Assembly (NCBI RefSeq): GCF_000421225.1
Contig: NZ_ATWL01000004.1
Span: 186,001-250,000, forward strand
From: Ruania albidiflava DSM 18029
Lineage (GTDB): Bacteria > Actinomycetota > Actinomycetes > Actinomycetales > Beutenbergiaceae
Direction: 5' to 3'
DNA length: 64,000 nucleotides
Below the pieces are notes generated by a model. That model did no database searches. It was not told where the DNA came from and worked only from the letters and a program-made list of their open reading frames with translations. The position numbers and the translations under genes were made by a program. How positions within the stretch are numbered: the first letter of the stretch is position 1; the number at the start of each line of letters is the position of its first letter. Shown here one piece after another: positions 33,777 to 44,582 of this stretch.

Positions 33777-33817
33777 CTAAGTTAAGGCTTGCCTTAATTA
33801 GGGCAGCCTTAACTTAG
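33777..33817. promoter_or_regulatory. Tandem DtxR/IdeR-type iron boxes
   Basis: A 41-bp AT-rich island with 11-bp perfect outer arms (CTAAGTTAAGG and CCTTAACTTAG). Inside are the boxes TTAAGGC-TT-GCCTTAA (33782-33797) and TTAGGGC-A-GCCTTAA (33798-33812), both close to the actinobacterial iron-box pattern. It ends 22 bases before the htaA start, so iron-bound DtxR/IdeR would block the promoter. This is the usual logic for haem uptake genes. Confidence 0.8.
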
Positions 33818-33839
33818 TTCTGACTCGACGGAGATTTCC

Positions 33840-36096
33840 ATGCAACGATCTGTCGTCGCGCGCGCCAAGAGAGCTCTTGCGGCCAGTGCGACTGTGTTCC
33901 TCGCAGCCACCGGAGCGGTCACGCTCGCGGCCGCGCCCGCGTCCGCAGCCGAAGGAACGGTGAGCGACGCCACGTTGAGCTGGGGAGTGCGGGAGTCCTT
34001 CCGCAACTACGTCGAGGGCCCGATCGCGCACGGACAGATCACCACCTCCGAGGTGAGCGAGTCCGCCGCCGGGTACGACTTCACCGGCGGCGCCGGCGTC
34101 GCCGACCCCGAGGCAGGGGACCGCAGCCGTCTCCTTCCCCGGGTCGGTGCACTTCCAAGGGCACGAGAGCAGCGAGCCAGGGGTCTACATCCTGGACATG
34201 CTCATCGAGAACGTCCAGGTGGAGGTGGCCGGACCGGACGAGGTGTACCTGGTGGCCGATCTCACCTCTCGCCCGTTCGAGTCGATGACCGAGCCGAGCG
34301 ACCTGGAGACCCATGAGGGCGTCCGGCTGGTCAGCGTGGACGCCGATGCGGTGACGGTCGATGACGAGCTGGTCTCCGCAGACGGCGCCGCGACCGCCAT
34401 CACCGCGGACGGTTCAGTGGCCTTCGGTGAGTTCTACGACGCTGGTGAGGCGATGGATCCGGTCACCTTCGCGCTGCCGGTGACCGTGCCGGAGGACAAC
34501 GAGCCGCCTGCGGAGGAGGACCCGGGTGAGGAGGACCCCGGTGAGGATCCGCCGGGTGAGGAGGACGAGCAGCCGGGCGAGGACGACCCAGCGGAGGACG
34601 AGCAGCCGGGTGAGGAGGACCAGCCCGGGGACGAGCAGCCGGACGAGGACGCCGGTGAGCCCTCCGACGAGGAGAGCCCGGACCGCCCAGAGAACCCGGA
34701 GAGCCCCGGGACCGACCAGGACGACCCAGGCCCCGCCGTCGAGCAGGACGAGACCGCTACCACCAGCCTGGCTGCCGAGAGCACCGCGCTGACCTGGGGG
34801 CTGAAGCAGTCCTTCCTCAGCTACATCCAGGGCCCGATCGCCCACGGGGAGGTCAGCACGGACGGCGGCATCACTTTCGACGGTGACGCGTTCACCTTCT
34901 CCGACGGCAGCGGCGCAGGCGACTCCGCCGACGGCACCGCGCTGGTCGCCTACCCCGGCACCATCTCCTTCACCGGGCACGACGGTCTGCTCGACCTGAC
35001 GGTCTCGGACCTACGCCTGCGCATCGACACCCCAACCACGGGTGCGATCGTCGCCACGATGGTCTCCAGGTCGTTGGAGACCGGCGAGTACGAGACGTTC
35101 ACCGGTATCGACCTGGCCGAAGTGACCCTGTCCGGGGCGGAGGTGGCCGAGGGCGACCTGCAGCTCCGTGACGCACCCGCGACGCTCACCGAGGAGGGCG
35201 CCGGTGGGTTTGCCGGGTTCTACGAGGCCGGGGCTGAGCTGGACCCAGTCTCTGCTCAGATCACCTTCGTCGCCACAGAGGATGACACCACCCCGCCGCC
35301 GCCGGGCGACCCGCAGGTGCCGACCACCCCGGGTACCGGGAACAATGCCGGAGGTTCTGCGGGGGGCCAGGGGACCGGTGGCGACCCTGCCGGTGAGGAC
35401 CCCGCGGGTACCGACCCGGCGGCGGAGACCGAGGACCCTGCGGCCGTGTGCACCGCGAACGCGGTCAGCGGCGCCACCCTCAGCTGGGGCCTGAAGTCCA
35501 GCTTCCGCAGCTACATCTCCGGCGGCATCGCCAACGGCGGCTGGACCACCAGCGGTGGTATCAGCGACAGCGACGGCGGCTGGACGTTCGCCGACGGCAG
35601 CGGCTCGATCAACACCGAGACCCTGGGCGGGTCGGTGACCTTCCCGGGCACGCTGCACTTCACCGGGCACGACGGCATCCTCGACCTGCAGATCAGCGAC
35701 CTGACCCTGCGGCTGACCGGCCCGACCTCCGGGAGCCTGTACGCGGACATGGTCTCCAACGACATGGAGGGCAACACCAGCACCTACTCGGGCATCCAGC
35801 TCGCCACGGTGTCCTTCCCGGCGGTGAGCGCAGGGTCGAGCATCACCCTGTCTGGGGCCTCGGTCACCCTGACCTCCGCCGGCGCCGAAGGGTTCGCCGG
35901 GTTCTACGAGGCCGGGACCACGCTGGACACCCTGGACGCAGAGCTCCCGCTCGGCGGGCCCGTGGACTGCTCGGCAGCTGCCGGCACCACGCTCGCAGCC
36001 ACCGGCGCAGACCCGGTCGCGCCGCTGCTGGCAGTGGCCGGGGTGCTGATGCTGCTCGGCATCGCCCTCGTTCTCCGGCGGTCCGTGCTGCGATGA
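33840..36096 (+). pseudogene. htaA: Three-domain HtaA haem-binding surface protein, frameshifted
   Basis: The ATG at 33840 opens a signal peptide ending ASA-AE, then a first HtaA domain (SFRNYV). The frame is lost at a GGGG run (34116-34119): removing one G rejoins it to the frame that reads HFQGHES and continues to the stop at 36096, giving a 751-residue protein. The joined protein has three HtaA domains, each with the conserved Tyr-bearing SFxxYI/V motif and the FxGH motif. Pro/Glu-rich acidic linkers separate them. The C-terminus is LAATG (718-722), a hydrophobic helix and RR, a sortase class E-type sorting signal. In corynebacteria HtaA takes haem from haemoproteins and passes it to HmuT. 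The downstream hmuT overlaps by ATGA and is intact, so this may be a sequencing error or a recent mutation. Confidence 0.85.
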
Positions 36097-37238
36097 TCCG
36101 GCGCAGGCTGCTCGCGATCGTCCTGCTCCTGGCCGCCCTCACCGGGTGCGCCGGGAGCGGGACGGCCGCGACCGATCCCAGCGGGGCAACGTCCGAAGCC
36201 GGGACCGACCCGGACTCCACAGGGCAGCCGGACGCGGATGCGACCGGGCCTGCTGAGGAGAGCGGTTCTGGGGACGCGTCCGGGGAGCAACCCGCTGCCT
36301 CGACCGAGGACCCGCACAGCCTCACCGGCCCGTCCACTGCCGCGCAGGTGCCCGCCACCGAACCGGTCACCGCCGATCCCGACCAGCAGCTGCCGGTCAC
36401 CGTGACCGGCGAGGACGGGCAGGAGGTCACCATCGAGGACACCTCCCGCATGCTGGCGCTCGACCTGTACGGCACCCTCGCAGAGATCACCGTGGGACTC
36501 GGCCTGGGTGAGGACCTGGTCGGCCGCACCGTGTCGAACACCCAGGACGTGCTCGCCGACCTGCCGGTGGTCACCGAGAACGGGCACGAGCTGAACGTGG
36601 AGGCCATCCTCGCGCTGGAGCCCACCTTCGTGCTGATGGACACCACGATGGGTCCGCCGGAGGTGCCCGACCAGCTGCGTGCCTCCGGGGTACCGGTGCT
36701 GGTGGTCTCCTCCGACCGCGGGGTGGACCTGATCACCGAACAGATCCAGCTCGTGGCCGAGGCGCTCGGCGTGCCCGCCGCCGGCGACCTGCTCACCGAC
36801 CGGTTCGAGGGCGACCTGGAGGCCGCGCACACCTACGTCGACGCGCTGACCGAGGGCTGGGACCCGCTGCGGATGGCGTTCCTGTACGTGCGCAGCACCG
36901 GCAGCGTGTTCTTCGTCATGGGTGAGGGGTCCGGCGCCGACGACCTCATCGAGCACGTCGGCGGCCTCGACACCGCCAGCGACGCCGGGCTGGCCGATGT
37001 CACCCCCGCGACCGCCGAAGCGGTGATCGCCCTCGACCCCGAGCTGATCATCACCATGACCGGCGGGCTGGACTCGACCGGCGGAGTGCAGGGGCTGCTG
37101 GACCGGCCCGGGATCGCCCAGACCACTGTGGGGGAGACCGAGCGGATCGTGGACATGGCCGACGGTGCAGTGCTCTCCTTCGGACCGAGCTACCCGGCTG
37201 TGCTCACTGCTCTCGCGGACGCCATCTACCAGCCGTGA
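36093..37238 (+). CDS. hmuT: Haem ABC transporter substrate-binding lipoprotein
   Basis: A protein of 381 residues with signal peptide and lipobox LTGC, then a long Ser/Asp/Glu/Thr-rich spacer before a FecB-type (TroA-like) binding domain. That domain contains LALDLYGTLAEITVGLGLGE near its start. It receives haem from HtaA and delivers it to HmuU. ATG at 36093 overlaps the htaA stop (ATGA). Being downstream of the tandem iron boxes, it is expected to be induced by iron limitation. Confidence 0.92.
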   Translation: MIRRRLLAIVLLLAALTGCAGSGTAATDPSGATSEAGTDPDSTGQPDADATGPAEESGSGDASGEQPAASTEDPHSLTGPSTAAQVPATEPVTADPDQQLPVTVTGEDGQEVTIEDTSRMLALDLYGTLAEITVGLGLGEDLVGRTVSNTQDVLADLPVVTENGHELNVEAILALEPTFVLMDTTMGPPEVPDQLRASGVPVLVVSSDRGVDLITEQIQLVAEALGVPAAGDLLTDRFEGDLEAAHTYVDALTEGWDPLRMAFLYVRSTGSVFFVMGEGSGADDLIEHVGGLDTASDAGLADVTPATAEAVIALDPELIITMTGGLDSTGGVQGLLDRPGIAQTTVGETERIVDMADGAVLSFGPSYPAVLTALADAIYQP

Positions 37239-37248
37239 GGAGCAGCCG

Positions 37249-38379
37249 ATGAGCACGCTGGCCCGCCCGTTGGGCCTGTTCGACGGCGCCCGGTCGCCCG
37301 GGCAGGTGGCCGCACCGGCCCACCCGCTCGCCCCGGGACGGGCGGGACGGTTGACGGCCTCGGCCGGGCGGCGGCGCGCCTGGTGGAGCGCCGCGGTGCT
37401 GCTGGTCGGTCTGCTGGGAGTGTGCCTGGCGTCGATGCACCTGGGCCAGTACCCGATCCCGGTGGCCGACGTGGTCACCGGGCTGGCCCGCAGCCTGGGT
37501 CTGTCCGATGCACCGGCTCTCGCCTCCGACGGGGTGCTGTGGAACGTGCGCGTGCCGCGGATCGGTGCCGGTGTGCTGGTGGGAGCCGCGCTCGGTACCG
37601 CCGGTGCGGTGACCCAGAGCCTGTTCGGCAACCCGCTCGCCGAGCCGAGCGTCATCGGCATCACCTCTGGGGCCGGGGTGGGGGCGGCCGCGGCGACAGT
37701 CCTGGCCACGGCGGGCTCCGCCGTCCTGCTCGTGCCTTTGGGTGCCTTCGCGGCAGGTGTGGTCACCACTCTGCTGGTGTGGGGGCTGGCCGCGCTCGTG
37801 CGCGGCGGCGGCACTCTCACCCTGGTGCTCGTTGGCATCGCGGTGAACGCTGTGGCCGGGGCTGCCTCGTCGCTGATGATCTTCCTCACCGACACCGCCA
37901 GCCGGGAGGCGGTGGTGTTCTGGCAGCTGGGCAGCCTGAACGGTGCCACCTGGCCCGCGGTGGGCTACACCGCCCCGCTGGTGCTCGCCGGTCTGATCTG
38001 GTCGTTGACGATGAGCGGCCGGCTGGACGTGCTGGTGCTCGGCGAACGGGCCGCCGCACACACCGGGGTGAACCTGCGCTCGCTGCGTGCCCAGGCGGTG
38101 CTGTGCGCGGCGCTGCTGACCGCAGCGGCGGTGTCGGTCGCCGGGATCATCGGGTTCATCGGTCTGATCGTGCCGCACCTGCTGCGCCTGGTGGTCGGTC
38201 CACGCCAGCAGTACATCCTGCCGCTGTCGGCACTCGGCGGAGCGCTGCTGATCACCGGCAGCGATCTGGTCGCCCGGACCGCGATCGAGTTCGTGGACCT
38301 GCCGATCGGTGCGCTGACCGCGGTGATCGGCGGGCCGGTGTTCTTCCTGCTGCTGCGCCGCCGCGGGAGCGTGACGTGA
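37249..38379 (+). CDS. hmuU: Haem ABC transporter permease, FecCD family
   Basis: A protein of 376 residues with about ten membrane helices and family motifs VRVPRIGAGVLVGAALGTAG and GNPLAEPSVIGITSGAGVG, the conserved FecCD stretch. The last helices include AGIIGFIGLIVPHLLR. GAGGAG lies across the hmuT stop, giving coupled translation, and the stop overlaps the hmuV start (GTGA). It forms the channel with HmuV as ATPase. Confidence 0.94.
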   Translation: MSTLARPLGLFDGARSPGQVAAPAHPLAPGRAGRLTASAGRRRAWWSAAVLLVGLLGVCLASMHLGQYPIPVADVVTGLARSLGLSDAPALASDGVLWNVRVPRIGAGVLVGAALGTAGAVTQSLFGNPLAEPSVIGITSGAGVGAAAATVLATAGSAVLLVPLGAFAAGVVTTLLVWGLAALVRGGGTLTLVLVGIAVNAVAGAASSLMIFLTDTASREAVVFWQLGSLNGATWPAVGYTAPLVLAGLIWSLTMSGRLDVLVLGERAAAHTGVNLRSLRAQAVLCAALLTAAAVSVAGIIGFIGLIVPHLLRLVVGPRQQYILPLSALGGALLITGSDLVARTAIEFVDLPIGALTAVIGGPVFFLLLRRRGSVT

Positions 38380-39266
38380 CCGCGGTGCGCGAGCAGACCC
38401 GAGCTGGTGGTGAGCGTGGGACGAGCCGGGCACCCGCTGGCGGTGTGCAGGTCGAGGGGCTGCGGGTGCTGCGACAGGGCACACCGGTGCTGCAGGACGT
38501 CACGTTCACCGCCCCACCGGGTGCGGTCACTGCGCTGGTCGGACCGAACGGGTCCGGTAAGTCCACTGCGGTGGCGGTGATCGCCGGCGATCTGGCGCCG
38601 GCCGCCGGGCGGGTGACGGTCTCCGGTCAGCCGGTCTCCCGCCTCGGCGCGGCGCGGGCCGCACAGCTGCGCTCGGTGCTGCCGCAGGAGGTCACCGTGG
38701 CCTTCGACTACCTGGGTGCGGAGATCGTTGCGCTCGGGCGTCGGCCCTGGCGCGGGCAGGAGAGGGCCACGGAGCGAGCCCAGGTGGTGGCTAGCGCGTT
38801 GGCGGCCACCGACTCCTCGGCCGCGGCGGACCGGCGCGTGCTCACCCTCTCCGGCGGCGAGCGGGCCCGGGTGCAGCTGGCCCGGGTGCTCGCCCAGGAC
38901 GCGGCCGTGGTGCTGCTGGACGAACCGACCGCCGCCCTGGACCTGCGGCACCAGGCGCGCACGCTCACCCTGTGCCGACAGATCGCCGCTGCCGGTGGCA
39001 CCGTGGTGGTGGTGCTGCACGACCTGGACGCCGCACTGTCCACCGCCGACCACGCGGTGCTGCTCGACCGGGGCCGGGTGGTCGTGGCGGGGCCGGTGGA
39101 GCAGGTGACAGCCAAGGACCTGGAGCGGGTCTACCGGCACCCGATCTCGATCGTGAGCCACCCGGTGGACGGGCGGCCGATGGTGCTGCCCGCGCGGGTG
39201 CACGCTGCGTCTCAGCCTTCGAGCACGTGCACCGGCAGGTGGGCGTCGAATCCGTCGATCGACTGA
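38376..39266 (+). CDS. hmuV: Haem ABC transporter ATP-binding protein
   Basis: A protein of 296 residues with Walker A GPNGSGKST, signature TLSGGERARVQLARVL and Walker B AVVLLDEPTAALDLR. The GTG at 38376 overlaps the hmuU stop. The last about 18 residues lie over the decayed convergent PNPOx-like gene, suggesting that the original stop was lost and the protein is slightly extended. Confidence 0.93.
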   Translation: MTAVREQTRAGGERGTSRAPAGGVQVEGLRVLRQGTPVLQDVTFTAPPGAVTALVGPNGSGKSTAVAVIAGDLAPAAGRVTVSGQPVSRLGAARAAQLRSVLPQEVTVAFDYLGAEIVALGRRPWRGQERATERAQVVASALAATDSSAAADRRVLTLSGGERARVQLARVLAQDAAVVLLDEPTAALDLRHQARTLTLCRQIAAAGGTVVVVLHDLDAALSTADHAVLLDRGRVVVAGPVEQVTAKDLERVYRHPISIVSHPVDGRPMVLPARVHAASQPSSTCTGRWASNPSID

Positions 39267-40998: not shown

Positions 40999-41120
40999 GA
41001 TGTGCTCCTCTCCTGCCGTTGCCCCGAGTGTGCACCAGAGGTATGACAACGGCCGGTGACGGCACTCGCGAAGGGGAGCAACGCCGTCGTGCATCCCACG
41101 ATGCGAGACATGATCGCCCG

Positions 41121-41141
41121 ACCTGCGAGTGCAGGTACCAT
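41121..41141 (+). promoter_or_regulatory. Hairpin and -10 element upstream of the S-box leader
   Basis: ACCTGC-GAGT-GCAGGT is a perfect 6-bp stem with a four-base loop (41121-41136). TACCAT at 41136-41141 looks like a -10 hexamer, and a start of transcription 7 bases later would fall right at the beginning of the riboswitch. No good -35 element is seen. Confidence 0.45.
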
Positions 41142-41149
41142 CGAGAGCA

Positions 41150-41250
41150 CACCATCCAGAGCGGCCGAGAGTCCTGGCTCGAGGACGCCGCAGCAACCCC
41201 CCAACGGAAGCCTCCCGCGGGGAAGGGTGCTACCGCCAGGTCCGATGGAG
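41150..41250 (+). ncRNA. SAM-I (S-box) riboswitch upstream of metF-metE
   Basis: The order of conserved S-box elements is visible: the closing stem CCATC (41152-41156) with GATGG (41244-41248); AGAGCGGC opening the second stem; GAGAGTCC, then the core GCCGCAGCAACC; and GGGTGCTACC before the 3' side of the closing stem. S-box RNAs bind S-adenosylmethionine and turn methionine genes off when it is plentiful. No T-run follows, so control of translation start (or Rho-dependent termination) is more likely than an intrinsic terminator. The downstream metF and metE genes make the assignment fit. Confidence 0.85.
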
Positions 41251-41289
41251 TCGATTCATGCAGGCATGTTGTTTCCCGTGGGGGCGCCG

Positions 41290-42213
41290 ATGAGCACCGC
41301 ACCCCTGTTCGACGCGCCCGGACGCGGACCGAGCGTCTCGTTCGAGCTGTACCCGCCCCGCACTCCGCGCGGTGAGGAGACCGTGCGCCGGACCGTCGCT
41401 GCGCTCGCGGAGGCGGAACCGGACTTCTTCTCGGTCACCTACGGCGCCTCCGGATCTACCCGGGCCACCTCCCGGGAGCTGATCGAGGTGATCCTCGCCA
41501 CCACCAGTGTCACCCCTCTGGCGCACCTGACCTGTGTCGGGGCCAGCGCCGAGGACCTCGGTGGCTACGTCCGCTCCCTGCTGGAACGCGGCGTGCGGGA
41601 CTTCCTCGCGCTGCGCGGCGACCCGCCCGCCGGCCAGCCAGACTGGCGCCCGCACCCAGAGGGTCTGACCCGTTCAGCCGAGCTGGTCCGGCTGCTGCGC
41701 ACGCTCGCCACCGAGCACCACCCGGATGAGCAGGTCAGCGTCTCGGTGGCCACCTATCCCGGCGGCGCCTACGACGCCACGGGGCAACCGGTCGTCCTCG
41801 CCGACGACGTCGCGGCTCTGGTGGAGAAGCAGGCCGCCGGCGCCGACTTTGCCATCACCCAGCTGTTCTACGATGCCCGGCACTACGCCGAGCTGGTCCG
41901 CGCCGCCCGCGCCGCCGGGGTGCACATCCCGATCGTGCCCGGCATCATCCCGCTCACCGACCCCCGCCGGCTGCGCCGGATGGTCGAGCTCACCGACGTG
42001 CCCGTACCCGAAGACCTGCTGCACGCGTTGGACGAGGCCCCGGACGCCGAGGCTGCCTACCAGCTCGGCATGCGCGCCTCGGTGGACCTCGTGCAGGCCG
42101 TCCTGGAGGCCGGCGCCCCTGGCGTGCACCTGTACACCTTCAACTCCGCCCGTGCGGTCCTCGACCTGCTGCACCACGCCGGCCTGCGCCGAATGCCCGC
42201 CGCTCCTCGCTGA
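41290..42213 (+). CDS. metF: Methylenetetrahydrofolate reductase
   Basis: A protein of 307 residues, a TIM-barrel FAD enzyme that reduces 5,10-methylene- to 5-methyltetrahydrofolate, the methyl donor for MetE. Family blocks seen are VSFELYPPRTPRGEE, FFSVTYGASGSTR, LALRGDPP and TQLFYDARHY. ATG 41290 is chosen because in-frame ATGs upstream at 41267 and 41246 fall within or beside the riboswitch's last stem. It is followed 68 bases later by metE, with which it probably forms one riboswitch-controlled transcript. Confidence 0.95.
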   Translation: MSTAPLFDAPGRGPSVSFELYPPRTPRGEETVRRTVAALAEAEPDFFSVTYGASGSTRATSRELIEVILATTSVTPLAHLTCVGASAEDLGGYVRSLLERGVRDFLALRGDPPAGQPDWRPHPEGLTRSAELVRLLRTLATEHHPDEQVSVSVATYPGGAYDATGQPVVLADDVAALVEKQAAGADFAITQLFYDARHYAELVRAARAAGVHIPIVPGIIPLTDPRRLRRMVELTDVPVPEDLLHALDEAPDAEAAYQLGMRASVDLVQAVLEAGAPGVHLYTFNSARAVLDLLHHAGLRRMPAAPR

Positions 42214-42281: not shown

Positions 42282-44582
42282 ATGAGCAACCCCCTGCCTA
42301 CCGCCACCATCCTCGGCTACCCCCGGATCGGGGAGAACCGCGAGCTCAAGCGCGCCCTGGAGTCCTACTGGGCCGACCGCAGCAGCGCCGACGACCTGCG
42401 CACTGCCGCAGCCCAGGTGCGCCGCACCACCCGGCAGCGACTCACCGCCCTCGGCCTGGATGCCGAGGGCGCTGCGATCCCCTCCGACTTCGCCTACTAC
42501 GACCAGGTGCTCACCACGGCGATCCAGGTCGGTGCGGTGCCGGCACGGTTCGGCATCGAACCGTCGGACGCTCCGCTCAGCCTGGACGAGGAGTTCCGCC
42601 TCGCCCGCGGCGATGCGGACACCCCGCCGCTGGAGCTGACCAAGTGGTTCGACACCAACTACCACTACCTGGTGCCAGAGATCTCCCCGCAGACCCCGCT
42701 GCGGCACATCCCCGGGGCCGCGGCCGTGTCCGAGCTGCGCGAAGCCCTGGCCGAGGGGGTGCTCACCCGCCCGGTGCTGGTCGGCCCGGTGACCCTGCTG
42801 CTGCTGTCCAAGCCGGAGAACCCCGGCGACCCGGCACCGCTGGAGCGTCTGGACGACCTGGTCGCGGTGTACGCGGCATGGCTGGCCGAGCTGGCTGCCG
42901 CTGGTGCCACCTGGGTACAGCTGGACGAGCCGGCCCTGGTCGCCGACACCTGGGACGTCCCGGCCGAGCAGGTCACCGCCGCCGCCGAGCAGGCCTACCG
43001 GAGGCTCGCCGGCGCCACCGACCGGCCCTCGCTGCTGGTGGCCGCCCCGTACGGGGAGCTGCGGGAGAACTTCGCAGCGCTCACCGGCACCGGCGTGGAG
43101 GCGATCGGTATCGACCTGGTGCACGGCGCCCTGCCAGCCGACCTGGACGCAGCAGCCACCGCCGACGTGACCGTGGTCGCTGGTGTGGTCGACGGGCACA
43201 ACGTCTGGCGCACCGACCTGGACCGGGCCACCGCACTGCTGCAGCAGGTGCGCGAGCGCGCCGGGCAGGTGAGCGTGGGCACCGCCACCTCGCTGCTGCA
43301 CGTACCGCACACCACCGCCGTGGAGGACGGGCTCAGCGACCAGCTGCGCAGCTGGCTCGCCTTCGCGCACGAGAAGGTCACCGAGGTGCGCACCCTCGCC
43401 CGGGGGCTGGCTGGTGAGGACGTCTCCGTCGAGCTTTCTGCGGCACGTGCTGCGTTGGCCGACCGGGCCCAGGCCGACGGCGTCTCCCGCACCCAGGTGC
43501 GGGACCGGGTCGCGGCTGTGACACCCGAGGACACCCACCGCGCCGACTACACCGACCGGGTCGAGGCGCAGCGGGCGCTCGGTCTTCCCGACCTGCCGAC
43601 CACCACGATCGGTAGCTTCCCGCAGACCACCGAGCTGCGTCAGGCCCGCGCCCGGCTGCGCACCGGGGAGCTCACCCAGGCCGAGTACGAGCAGGTGATC
43701 CGCGACGAGATCGCCCGGGTGATCGCCCTGCAGGAGGAGCTCGGCCTGGACGTGCTGGTGCACGGGGAGCCGGAGCGCAACGACATGGTGCAGTACTTCG
43801 CCGAGCACCTGGACGGGTTCGCCGTGACCCAGCACGGTTGGGTGCAGTCCTACGGATCGCGGTGCACCCGACCCTCGCTGCTGTGGGGAGACGTGAGCCG
43901 GCCGGCGCCGATCACCCCGGCCTGGTCCGGCTACGCGGCGTCGCTGACCGACAAGCCGGTCAAGGGCATGCTCACCGGTCCGGTGACCATCTTGGCCTGG
44001 TCGTTCGTGCGTGACGACCTGCCGGTGCCGGAGGTGGCGCAGCAGGTGGCGCTCGCCCTGCGGGACGAGATCGCCGACCTGGAGGCTGCCGGGATCCGGG
44101 TGGTGCAGGTGGACGAGCCGGCGCTGCGCGAGCTGCTGCCGCTGCGCCGGGAGGACCACCGGGCTTATGTGGACTGGTCGGTGGGGGCGTTCCGGCTCGC
44201 CACCGGCGGTGCCGCCGCGGACACGCAGGTGCACACCCACCTGTGCTACTCCGAGTTCGGTGAGGTGATCGACGCGATCAACGGCCTGGACGCCGACGTC
44301 ACGTCGATCGAGGCGGCCCGTTCGGCGATGGAGGTGGTTCCGGAGCTCGCCGCTGCGAAGTTCTCCCGCGGTCTGGGCCCCGGGGTGTACGACATCCACT
44401 CCCCGCGCGTGCCGTCCACCGAGGAGATCGCCGGCCTGCTGCGCCTGGCCGACGGTGCGCTGGCCCGCGGGCAGCTGTGGGTGAACCCGGACTGCGGGCT
44501 GAAGACTCGCGGTTACGAGGAGACGGTGGCAGCGCTGACGAACCTCGTGGCGGCGGCCCGTCAGGTGCGCGCCGAGCACTGA
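42282..44582 (+). CDS. metE: Cobalamin-independent methionine synthase
   Basis: A protein of 766 residues, the usual length of MetE. It transfers the methyl group of 5-methyltetrahydropteroyltriglutamate to homocysteine. The N-terminal folate-site part starts ATILGYPRIGENRELK. The C-terminal catalytic barrel carries the zinc ligands in HTHLCYSEF (His and Cys) and NPDCGLKTRG (Cys), plus YDIHSPRVPS. It is expected to follow the S-box switch through metF. Confidence 0.97.
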   Translation: MSNPLPTATILGYPRIGENRELKRALESYWADRSSADDLRTAAAQVRRTTRQRLTALGLDAEGAAIPSDFAYYDQVLTTAIQVGAVPARFGIEPSDAPLSLDEEFRLARGDADTPPLELTKWFDTNYHYLVPEISPQTPLRHIPGAAAVSELREALAEGVLTRPVLVGPVTLLLLSKPENPGDPAPLERLDDLVAVYAAWLAELAAAGATWVQLDEPALVADTWDVPAEQVTAAAEQAYRRLAGATDRPSLLVAAPYGELRENFAALTGTGVEAIGIDLVHGALPADLDAAATADVTVVAGVVDGHNVWRTDLDRATALLQQVRERAGQVSVGTATSLLHVPHTTAVEDGLSDQLRSWLAFAHEKVTEVRTLARGLAGEDVSVELSAARAALADRAQADGVSRTQVRDRVAAVTPEDTHRADYTDRVEAQRALGLPDLPTTTIGSFPQTTELRQARARLRTGELTQAEYEQVIRDEIARVIALQEELGLDVLVHGEPERNDMVQYFAEHLDGFAVTQHGWVQSYGSRCTRPSLLWGDVSRPAPITPAWSGYAASLTDKPVKGMLTGPVTILAWSFVRDDLPVPEVAQQVALALRDEIADLEAAGIRVVQVDEPALRELLPLRREDHRAYVDWSVGAFRLATGGAAADTQVHTHLCYSEFGEVIDAINGLDADVTSIEAARSAMEVVPELAAAKFSRGLGPGVYDIHSPRVPSTEEIAGLLRLADGALARGQLWVNPDCGLKTRGYEETVAALTNLVAAARQVRAEH

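What the first reader, a model, noticed from the sequence alone, without database searches (positions are those of the whole stretch)
33840..36096. One extra G interrupts an otherwise intact three-domain HtaA gene
The frame from 33840 is lost at GGGG (34116-34119). Removing one G restores a 751-residue protein with a signal peptide, three HtaA domains and a cell-wall sorting tail. hmuT, hmuU and hmuV downstream are intact and overlap normally. A homopolymer sequencing error, a recent loss, or slippage-based on/off switching of a surface haem receptor are all possible.
Basis: partly seen in the sequence, partly recalled or inferred. Interest (0 to 1): 0.7.

Follow-up and report, generated by a model that had tools for sequence, protein, structure and literature searches.

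The report
Frame-broken haem receptor gene, ordinary lesion
The gene for a wall-anchored haem-binding protein is broken by a single frame change in this genome assembly, most likely an ordinary gene loss or a sequencing error, with no sign of being an on/off switch.

Summary
The first of three HtaA (CR, haem-binding) domains is split over two reading frames at GGGG 34116-34119; the upper frame ends at TGA 34314-34316, the rest stays open to 36096. In three same-genus genomes the orthologue is one open frame of 743-772 codons in the same gene order. The tract is short for slippage switching and a longer one lies elsewhere in the gene; relatives need no recoding; the three glycine tRNAs found have normal anticodon loops. 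Such breaks are common: by eye 6 single-gene splits in 850 kb of this genome against 1 in 800 kb of two relatives (p = 0.12), about 0.45 per 64 kb. Best reading: a recent inactivating indel in a patchy accessory operon (HtaA in 5 of 8 genomes of the genus, HmuU following it). A sequencing or assembly error stays open; only reads can tell. HtaA pseudogenes are in print for C. diphtheriae. Ordinary; low interest.

The parts
33783..33816 (+). two overlapping DtxR-like iron boxes (best 19-mer at 33798-33816, second at 33783-33801)
   Evidence: 14 and 12 of 19 matches to a recalled DtxR consensus; 14 is the best score in the 64 kb (+ strand reading only); the three relatives have 15, 13 and 15 of 19 upstream of htaA, each with a second match of 11-12 of 19 15 bases further on
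33830..33833 (+). GGAG, likely ribosome binding site of htaA
   Evidence: read from the sequence
33840..34316 (+). upper frame of htaA: signal peptide and the first third of HtaA domain 1, then 65 out-of-frame codons to TGA 34314-34316
34116..34119 (+). GGGG run where the coding frame changes by +1
   Evidence: alignment of both pieces to three relatives; codon-model path changes frame at the same place
34120..36096 (+). lower frame of htaA: rest of domain 1, domains 2 and 3, sorting tail; not in frame with the start codon
34786..35256 (+). HtaA domain 2
   Evidence: PF04213, E 7.9e-45
35473..35937 (+). HtaA domain 3
   Evidence: PF04213, E 1.2e-43; also matches PDB chains 6jsa (named 'hypothetical membrane protein', E 1.2e-36) and 8smu (HtaA CR2 fusion, E 1.1e-32)
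35992..36006 (+). LAATG sorting motif before a hydrophobic tail (class E type)
   Evidence: LAXTG as class E signal: PMC5148588 passages; one PF04203 sortase match in the genome
36093..37238 (+). hmuT, haem-binding lipoprotein; its ATG overlaps the htaA stop
   Evidence: PF01497, E 3.5e-29; sequence
37249..38379 (+). hmuU, permease
   Evidence: PF01032, E 5.3e-82
38376..39266 (+). hmuV, ATPase
   Evidence: PF00005, E 1.6e-28

Best explanation
This is the first gene of a probably iron-regulated haem-uptake operon (htaA-hmuT-hmuU-hmuV). Its product in relatives is a secreted protein with three haem-binding CR domains, anchored to the wall by a LAXTG signal, which by analogy with Corynebacterium takes haem at the surface and hands it to the lipoprotein HmuT. 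In the sequenced isolate a single indel of net +1 has disrupted the frame within domain 1, most likely a recent true loss-of-function mutation. The predicted product is a 158-codon secreted fragment without the Gly-His part of domain 1, without domains 2 and 3 and without a wall anchor. Shown: the split, the intact relatives, the operon, the box-like sequence. Inferred: that the lesion is in the DNA, that function is lost, and that hmuT translation suffers because its start overlaps the htaA stop.
For: One lesion in an otherwise open gene and operon. Orthologues in three same-genus genomes are single open frames of 743, 772 and 752 codons with the same upstream neighbour and hmuT, hmuU, hmuV after them. 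HtaA is patchy: 10 of 24 genomes of the family and 5 of 8 of the genus, and HmuU follows it (68-71% identity in G002, G004, G006; 48% near HtaA on the same contig in G003; at most 43% in G001, G005, G007, which lack HtaA), so the operon is dispensable. None of the six split sites kept from this genome has a run longer than four bases within 40 bases, and one is at a 7-base tandem repeat (by eye), which is not a long-homopolymer error signature. HtaA is called a pseudogene in C. diphtheriae ATCC 27012 and 5015 (PMC6488682, passage). Domain 1 has drifted most (48-52% identity to relatives against 61-70% among them; domain 2 59-63 against 65-74; domain 3 68-71 against 77-85).
Against: The genome is a 60-contig draft and I have no reads. 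Split genes are more frequent than in two relatives (6 in 850 kb against 1 in 800 kb, p = 0.12), which an error-prone assembly would also give. The rest of the gene shows no second lesion, as an error would predict. Domain 1 is also the most divergent domain among the intact relatives, so its low identity is weak evidence. The homology scan did not separate the two readings: 1 true break in 81 conserved loci, about what an even spread over the sample would give.
Confidence: 0.55

Rival explanations
1. The frame change is a sequencing or assembly error and the living strain has an intact three-domain htaA.
For: Draft of 60 contigs; the lesion is a one-base change at a short G run in 70% GC DNA; no second lesion; box-like promoter, domains 2 and 3, sorting tail and hmuTUV are all kept; this genome has more split genes than two relatives.
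Against: The six split sites kept lie at no run longer than four bases, and longer G runs in the same gene do not shift the frame. Of 81 conserved loci sampled only two places were flagged as split, and one of the two is explained by a riboswitch.
Confidence: 0.38
2. Slippage at the G tract switches the surface receptor on and off (phase variation).
For: The break lies at a G run near the start of a surface protein gene; a C5/C6 tract is mentioned as varying between meningococcal strains (PMC5084427, passage).
Against: Four bases only; that survey used six or more as cut-off. The gene has 23 runs of four or more G or C, one of them six long. The three relatives are in frame throughout, and the orthologous site of G006, the only one I read as DNA, has no longer run.
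Confidence: 0.02
3. Programmed or suppressor-driven +1 frameshifting at GGGG makes full-length HtaA.
For: A glycine tRNA on GGG could re-pair in the +1 frame at GGGG (general knowledge).
Against: Relatives need no shift. The next codon is GAC, which I take to be common in such DNA, and I saw no stimulator (by eye, not computed). The three glycine tRNAs found (CCC, TCC, GCC) have normal seven-base anticodon loops; 30 of 44 tRNA matches were taken as loci, so a further glycine tRNA is not excluded.
Confidence: 0.02
4. The two frames are two real genes, a short secreted domain fragment and an alternatively started remainder.
For: Both frames are open; GTG 34147 could start the lower one.
Against: The split cuts one Pfam domain in the middle, and the lower frame lacks a signal peptide although it ends in a sorting signal; the three complete relatives do not have this arrangement.
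Confidence: 0.03

Closest known systems
HtaA of Corynebacterium diphtheriae and C. glutamicum (CR-domain haem proteins, PF04213) with hmuTUV
   Same: Same domain family; operon partners HmuT, HmuU, HmuV; iron-box-like promoter; the Ser/Tyr, Gly-His and Tyr residues of the haem pocket described for HtaA-CR1 (PMC12494546 passages) are present in all three domains, judged by motif position.
   Different: Three CR domains and a LAXTG sorting tail instead of two CR domains and a membrane tail in corynebacterial HtaA (that comparison is recalled); here domain 1 is split by a frame change.
HtaA pseudogenes of C. diphtheriae ATCC 27012 and strain 5015
   Same: Broken htaA; the passage lists HmuT-V as possessed by strains there (PMC6488682, one passage, start cut off).
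   Different: Different genus; the kind of lesion in those strains is not given in the passage I saw.

Membership tests
HtaA / CR-domain haem-binding family (PF04213) | Match to PF04213 over the curated cut-off | tested here: met
   four matches, all over 24 bits, E 7.9e-45 to 6.0e-11
HtaA / CR-domain haem-binding family (PF04213) | Axial Tyr with preceding Ser, Gly-His helper, late Tyr | tested here: met
   ESFRNY / QGHES / EFYDAG in domain 1 (the first before, the other two after the break), QSFLSY / TGHDGL / GFYEAG in domain 2, SSFRSY / TGHDGI / GFYEAG in domain 3 (residues as in PMC12494546; no structural alignment made)
HtaA / CR-domain haem-binding family (PF04213) | Binds haem | not testable with these tools
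   needs purified protein
Pseudogene by frameshift | Intact orthologues in the same place in relatives | tested here: met
   G006, G002, G004: one open frame, same neighbours
Pseudogene by frameshift | The lesion is in the DNA of the strain | not testable with these tools
   no reads, no second genome of the species at hand
Phase-variable contingency gene | Long hypermutable tract or repeat at the switch | tested here: not met
   G4; 23 runs of four or more G or C in the gene, 570 in the window
Phase-variable contingency gene | Length polymorphism within the species | not testable with these tools
   one genome per species is held
Programmed +1 frameshift gene | Shift site and two-frame layout conserved in relatives | tested here: not met
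   three complete relatives are in one frame

The most novel reading that the evidence does not exclude
The GGGG is translated by occasional +1 slippage of the CCC glycine tRNA, so that a small share of molecules is full-length wall-anchored HtaA while most are a short secreted fragment, as a species-specific bet-hedge that relatives lack.
Probability: 0.02. Interest if true: 0.55.

Novelty: new member of a known kind. Interest (0 to 1): 0.1.

Why it matters
Little as it stands: it is one more frame-broken accessory gene, and HtaA loss is already known in corynebacteria. If the lesion is real it marks an isolate that kept HmuTUV but lost its only HtaA protein (one search finds no other HtaA domain in the genome), a natural test of whether HmuTUV works without a surface receptor. 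The three-CR, LAXTG-anchored HtaA of this genus looks like a modest extension of known domain layouts.

Tried and rejected
Phase variation, programmed frameshift, suppressor tRNA and two-gene readings were examined and set aside (see rivals). My first frame scan returned nothing because its penalties always routed frame changes through the non-coding state; replace it. The second frame split flagged by homology at contig position 227132 (window 41132) is not a break: it is a conserved SAM riboswitch in front of a start-codon over-extension. The comparison of the two relatives with each other flagged six splits of G006 genes against G002 and none of G002 genes against G006; I took the six as N-terminal over-extensions by eye (all begin at the query's first or second residue; one of them is the riboswitch gene) and did not count them. 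The homology scan meant to tell real lesions from errors was not decisive. In one search, 12 candidates came from this genome; reading them I kept 6 as single genes split over two frames, called 3 degenerate (contig C2 near 67.9, 176.8 and 204.5 kb) and dropped 3 as normal neighbours (C2 near 74.3, 158.2 and 173.2 kb). In the controls 3 candidates came up (1 in G006, 2 in G002) and 1 was kept. That sorting was by eye. The scan only sees breaks whose upper frame runs more than 60 bases past the change, so counts are lower bounds. Reading PMC4600297 and PMC3078919 by passage gave nothing on a broken htaA.

Full report
What is there. The frame that starts at 33840 runs through a signal peptide (by eye) and the first third of an HtaA (PF04213) domain, then leaves the coding frame at GGGG 34116-34119 and ends at TGA 34314-34316. 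The rest of that domain, two whole HtaA domains and an LAATG sorting tail are in the +1 frame, open to the stop at 36094-36096. Aligned apart to three relatives, the two pieces meet at ADPEAG / TAAVSFPGSVHF. The pieces are 93 and 658 residues, sum 751.

Surroundings. hmuT (36093-37238), hmuU (37249-38379) and hmuV (38376-39266) are unbroken and match PF01497, PF01032 and PF00005; the hmuT ATG overlaps the htaA stop. Upstream is the best DtxR-like 19-mer of the 64 kb (14 of 19 to a recalled consensus, + strand reading, 33798-33816), and the three relatives score 15, 13 and 15 of 19 upstream of their htaA. The genome has no HtaA domain outside this gene, one PF04203 sortase match and one PF01126 haem oxygenase match.

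Relatives. Of 8 genomes of the genus, this one included, 5 match the HtaA protein. Besides this one, G006, G002 and G004 have single open frames of 743, 772 and 752 codons with three domains; G003 has pieces at contig ends; G001, G005 and G007 have none. In G006, G002 and G004 the AP-endonuclease-like gene lies upstream on the other strand (73-77% identity) and hmuT, hmuU and hmuV follow (61-75%). In the family 10 of 24 genomes have HtaA, and no listed match has a stop inside. HmuU follows HtaA: 68-71% identity in G002, G004 and G006, 48% near HtaA on the same contig in G003, and at most 43% in the three genomes without HtaA, which is the level of this genome's own paralogues (up to 42%). The operon is thus an accessory unit.

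How unusual is a break. A codon-model scan of 850 kb of this genome (748 kb called coding) gave 12 frame changes in which the upper frame runs more than 60 bases past the change; 6 of the 12 are, by eye, single genes split over two frames. Besides htaA these are an APH-type kinase, a PEMT-type methyltransferase, a DUF222 protein, a DUF3626 protein (Pfam labels of one piece each) and an acetyltransferase-like gene (label by eye; one search found no family for its 60-residue piece). In 800 kb of two relatives (720 kb coding) 3 candidates came up and 1 was real by eye, a repetitive wall-anchored surface protein in G002. The difference is not significant (p = 0.12, Fisher on kb of coding), and the expectation is about 0.45 split genes per 64 kb. 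Where relatives allow a check by homology, htaA is the only true split in 81 conserved loci, 103 kb; the one other flag is a riboswitch leader. Three of the other split genes are patchy or poorly matched in the genus: the PEMT-type one has only 32-39% matches, the DUF3626 one matches 3 of 7 other genomes, and the APH-type one has close matches (73-75%) in 2 of 7. That fits accessory genes decaying, but the DUF222 and acetyltransferase-like genes were not searched for.

Mechanism. The tract is four G long. The gene has 23 runs of four or more G or C, one of them six long, and the window has 570. A survey of phase-variable genes used a cut-off of six for homopolymers, while noting one C5/C6 tract that varied (PMC5084427, passages). 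Recoding is not needed in relatives, and the three glycine tRNAs found have normal anticodon loops (30 of 44 tRNA matches taken as loci). So the break is best taken as an indel that stops HtaA production, or as an error in the assembly. I lean to a real, recent lesion (0.55) over an error (0.38), because the operon is dispensable in the genus, the other splits in this genome are not of the long-homopolymer type (no run over four bases within 40 bases of any of the six), and HtaA pseudogenes are known; but nothing I could run reads the actual DNA of the strain.

Function if intact, by analogy. The Ser/Tyr pair, the Gly-His helper and the late Tyr of the HtaA-CR1 pocket (PMC12494546, passages) are present in all three domains by motif. 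In domain 1 the axial Tyr (codon at 34008) lies before the break, and the Gly-His (34159-34164) and the late Tyr after it, so the fragment made from the upper frame would lack part of its pocket as well as the anchor. LAXTG is the class E sortase signal of actinobacteria (PMC5148588, passages).

Known before. C. diphtheriae strains with an htaA pseudogene are described (PMC6488682, passage), and htaA is variably present among strains (PMC5683216 and PMC11878320, passages). My searches for HtaA with frameshift, with hmuTUV or with pseudogene listed no title or passage on htaA switching; that covers only the open-licence library, and I saw only listings and the passages cited.

Noticed in passing
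window 41149-41251 (+): SAM riboswitch (RF00162, 55.5 bits) upstream of a MetF-like ORF (in the 41056-42213 frame) and a MetE-like ORF (42282-44582); labels of the two ORFs by eye.
   Followed up: partly
G002:C1 near 430260 (L079-L080): A large repetitive surface protein gene with an LPxTG-like tail is split over two frames at a short GATGGT repeat (by eye) in a single-contig same-genus genome.
   Followed up: no
G000:C4 163109-164024 (L035): A PEMT-type methyltransferase gene is split over two frames at a 7-base tandem repeat (repeat by eye).
   Followed up: partly
G000:C4 152670-153558 (L034): An APH-type kinase gene (macrolide-phosphotransferase-like by eye) is split over two frames; 73-75% matches without inner stops exist in G003 and G007.
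   Followed up: partly
G004:C1:1810495-1811544: A FecCD permease paralogue with one in-frame TAA, another interrupted transport gene of this kind in the genus.
   Followed up: no
window 34159-34300, domain 1: Domain 1 here carries in-frame insertions after the Gly-His motif (11 gap columns in the pairwise alignments) that the three relatives lack.
   Followed up: partly
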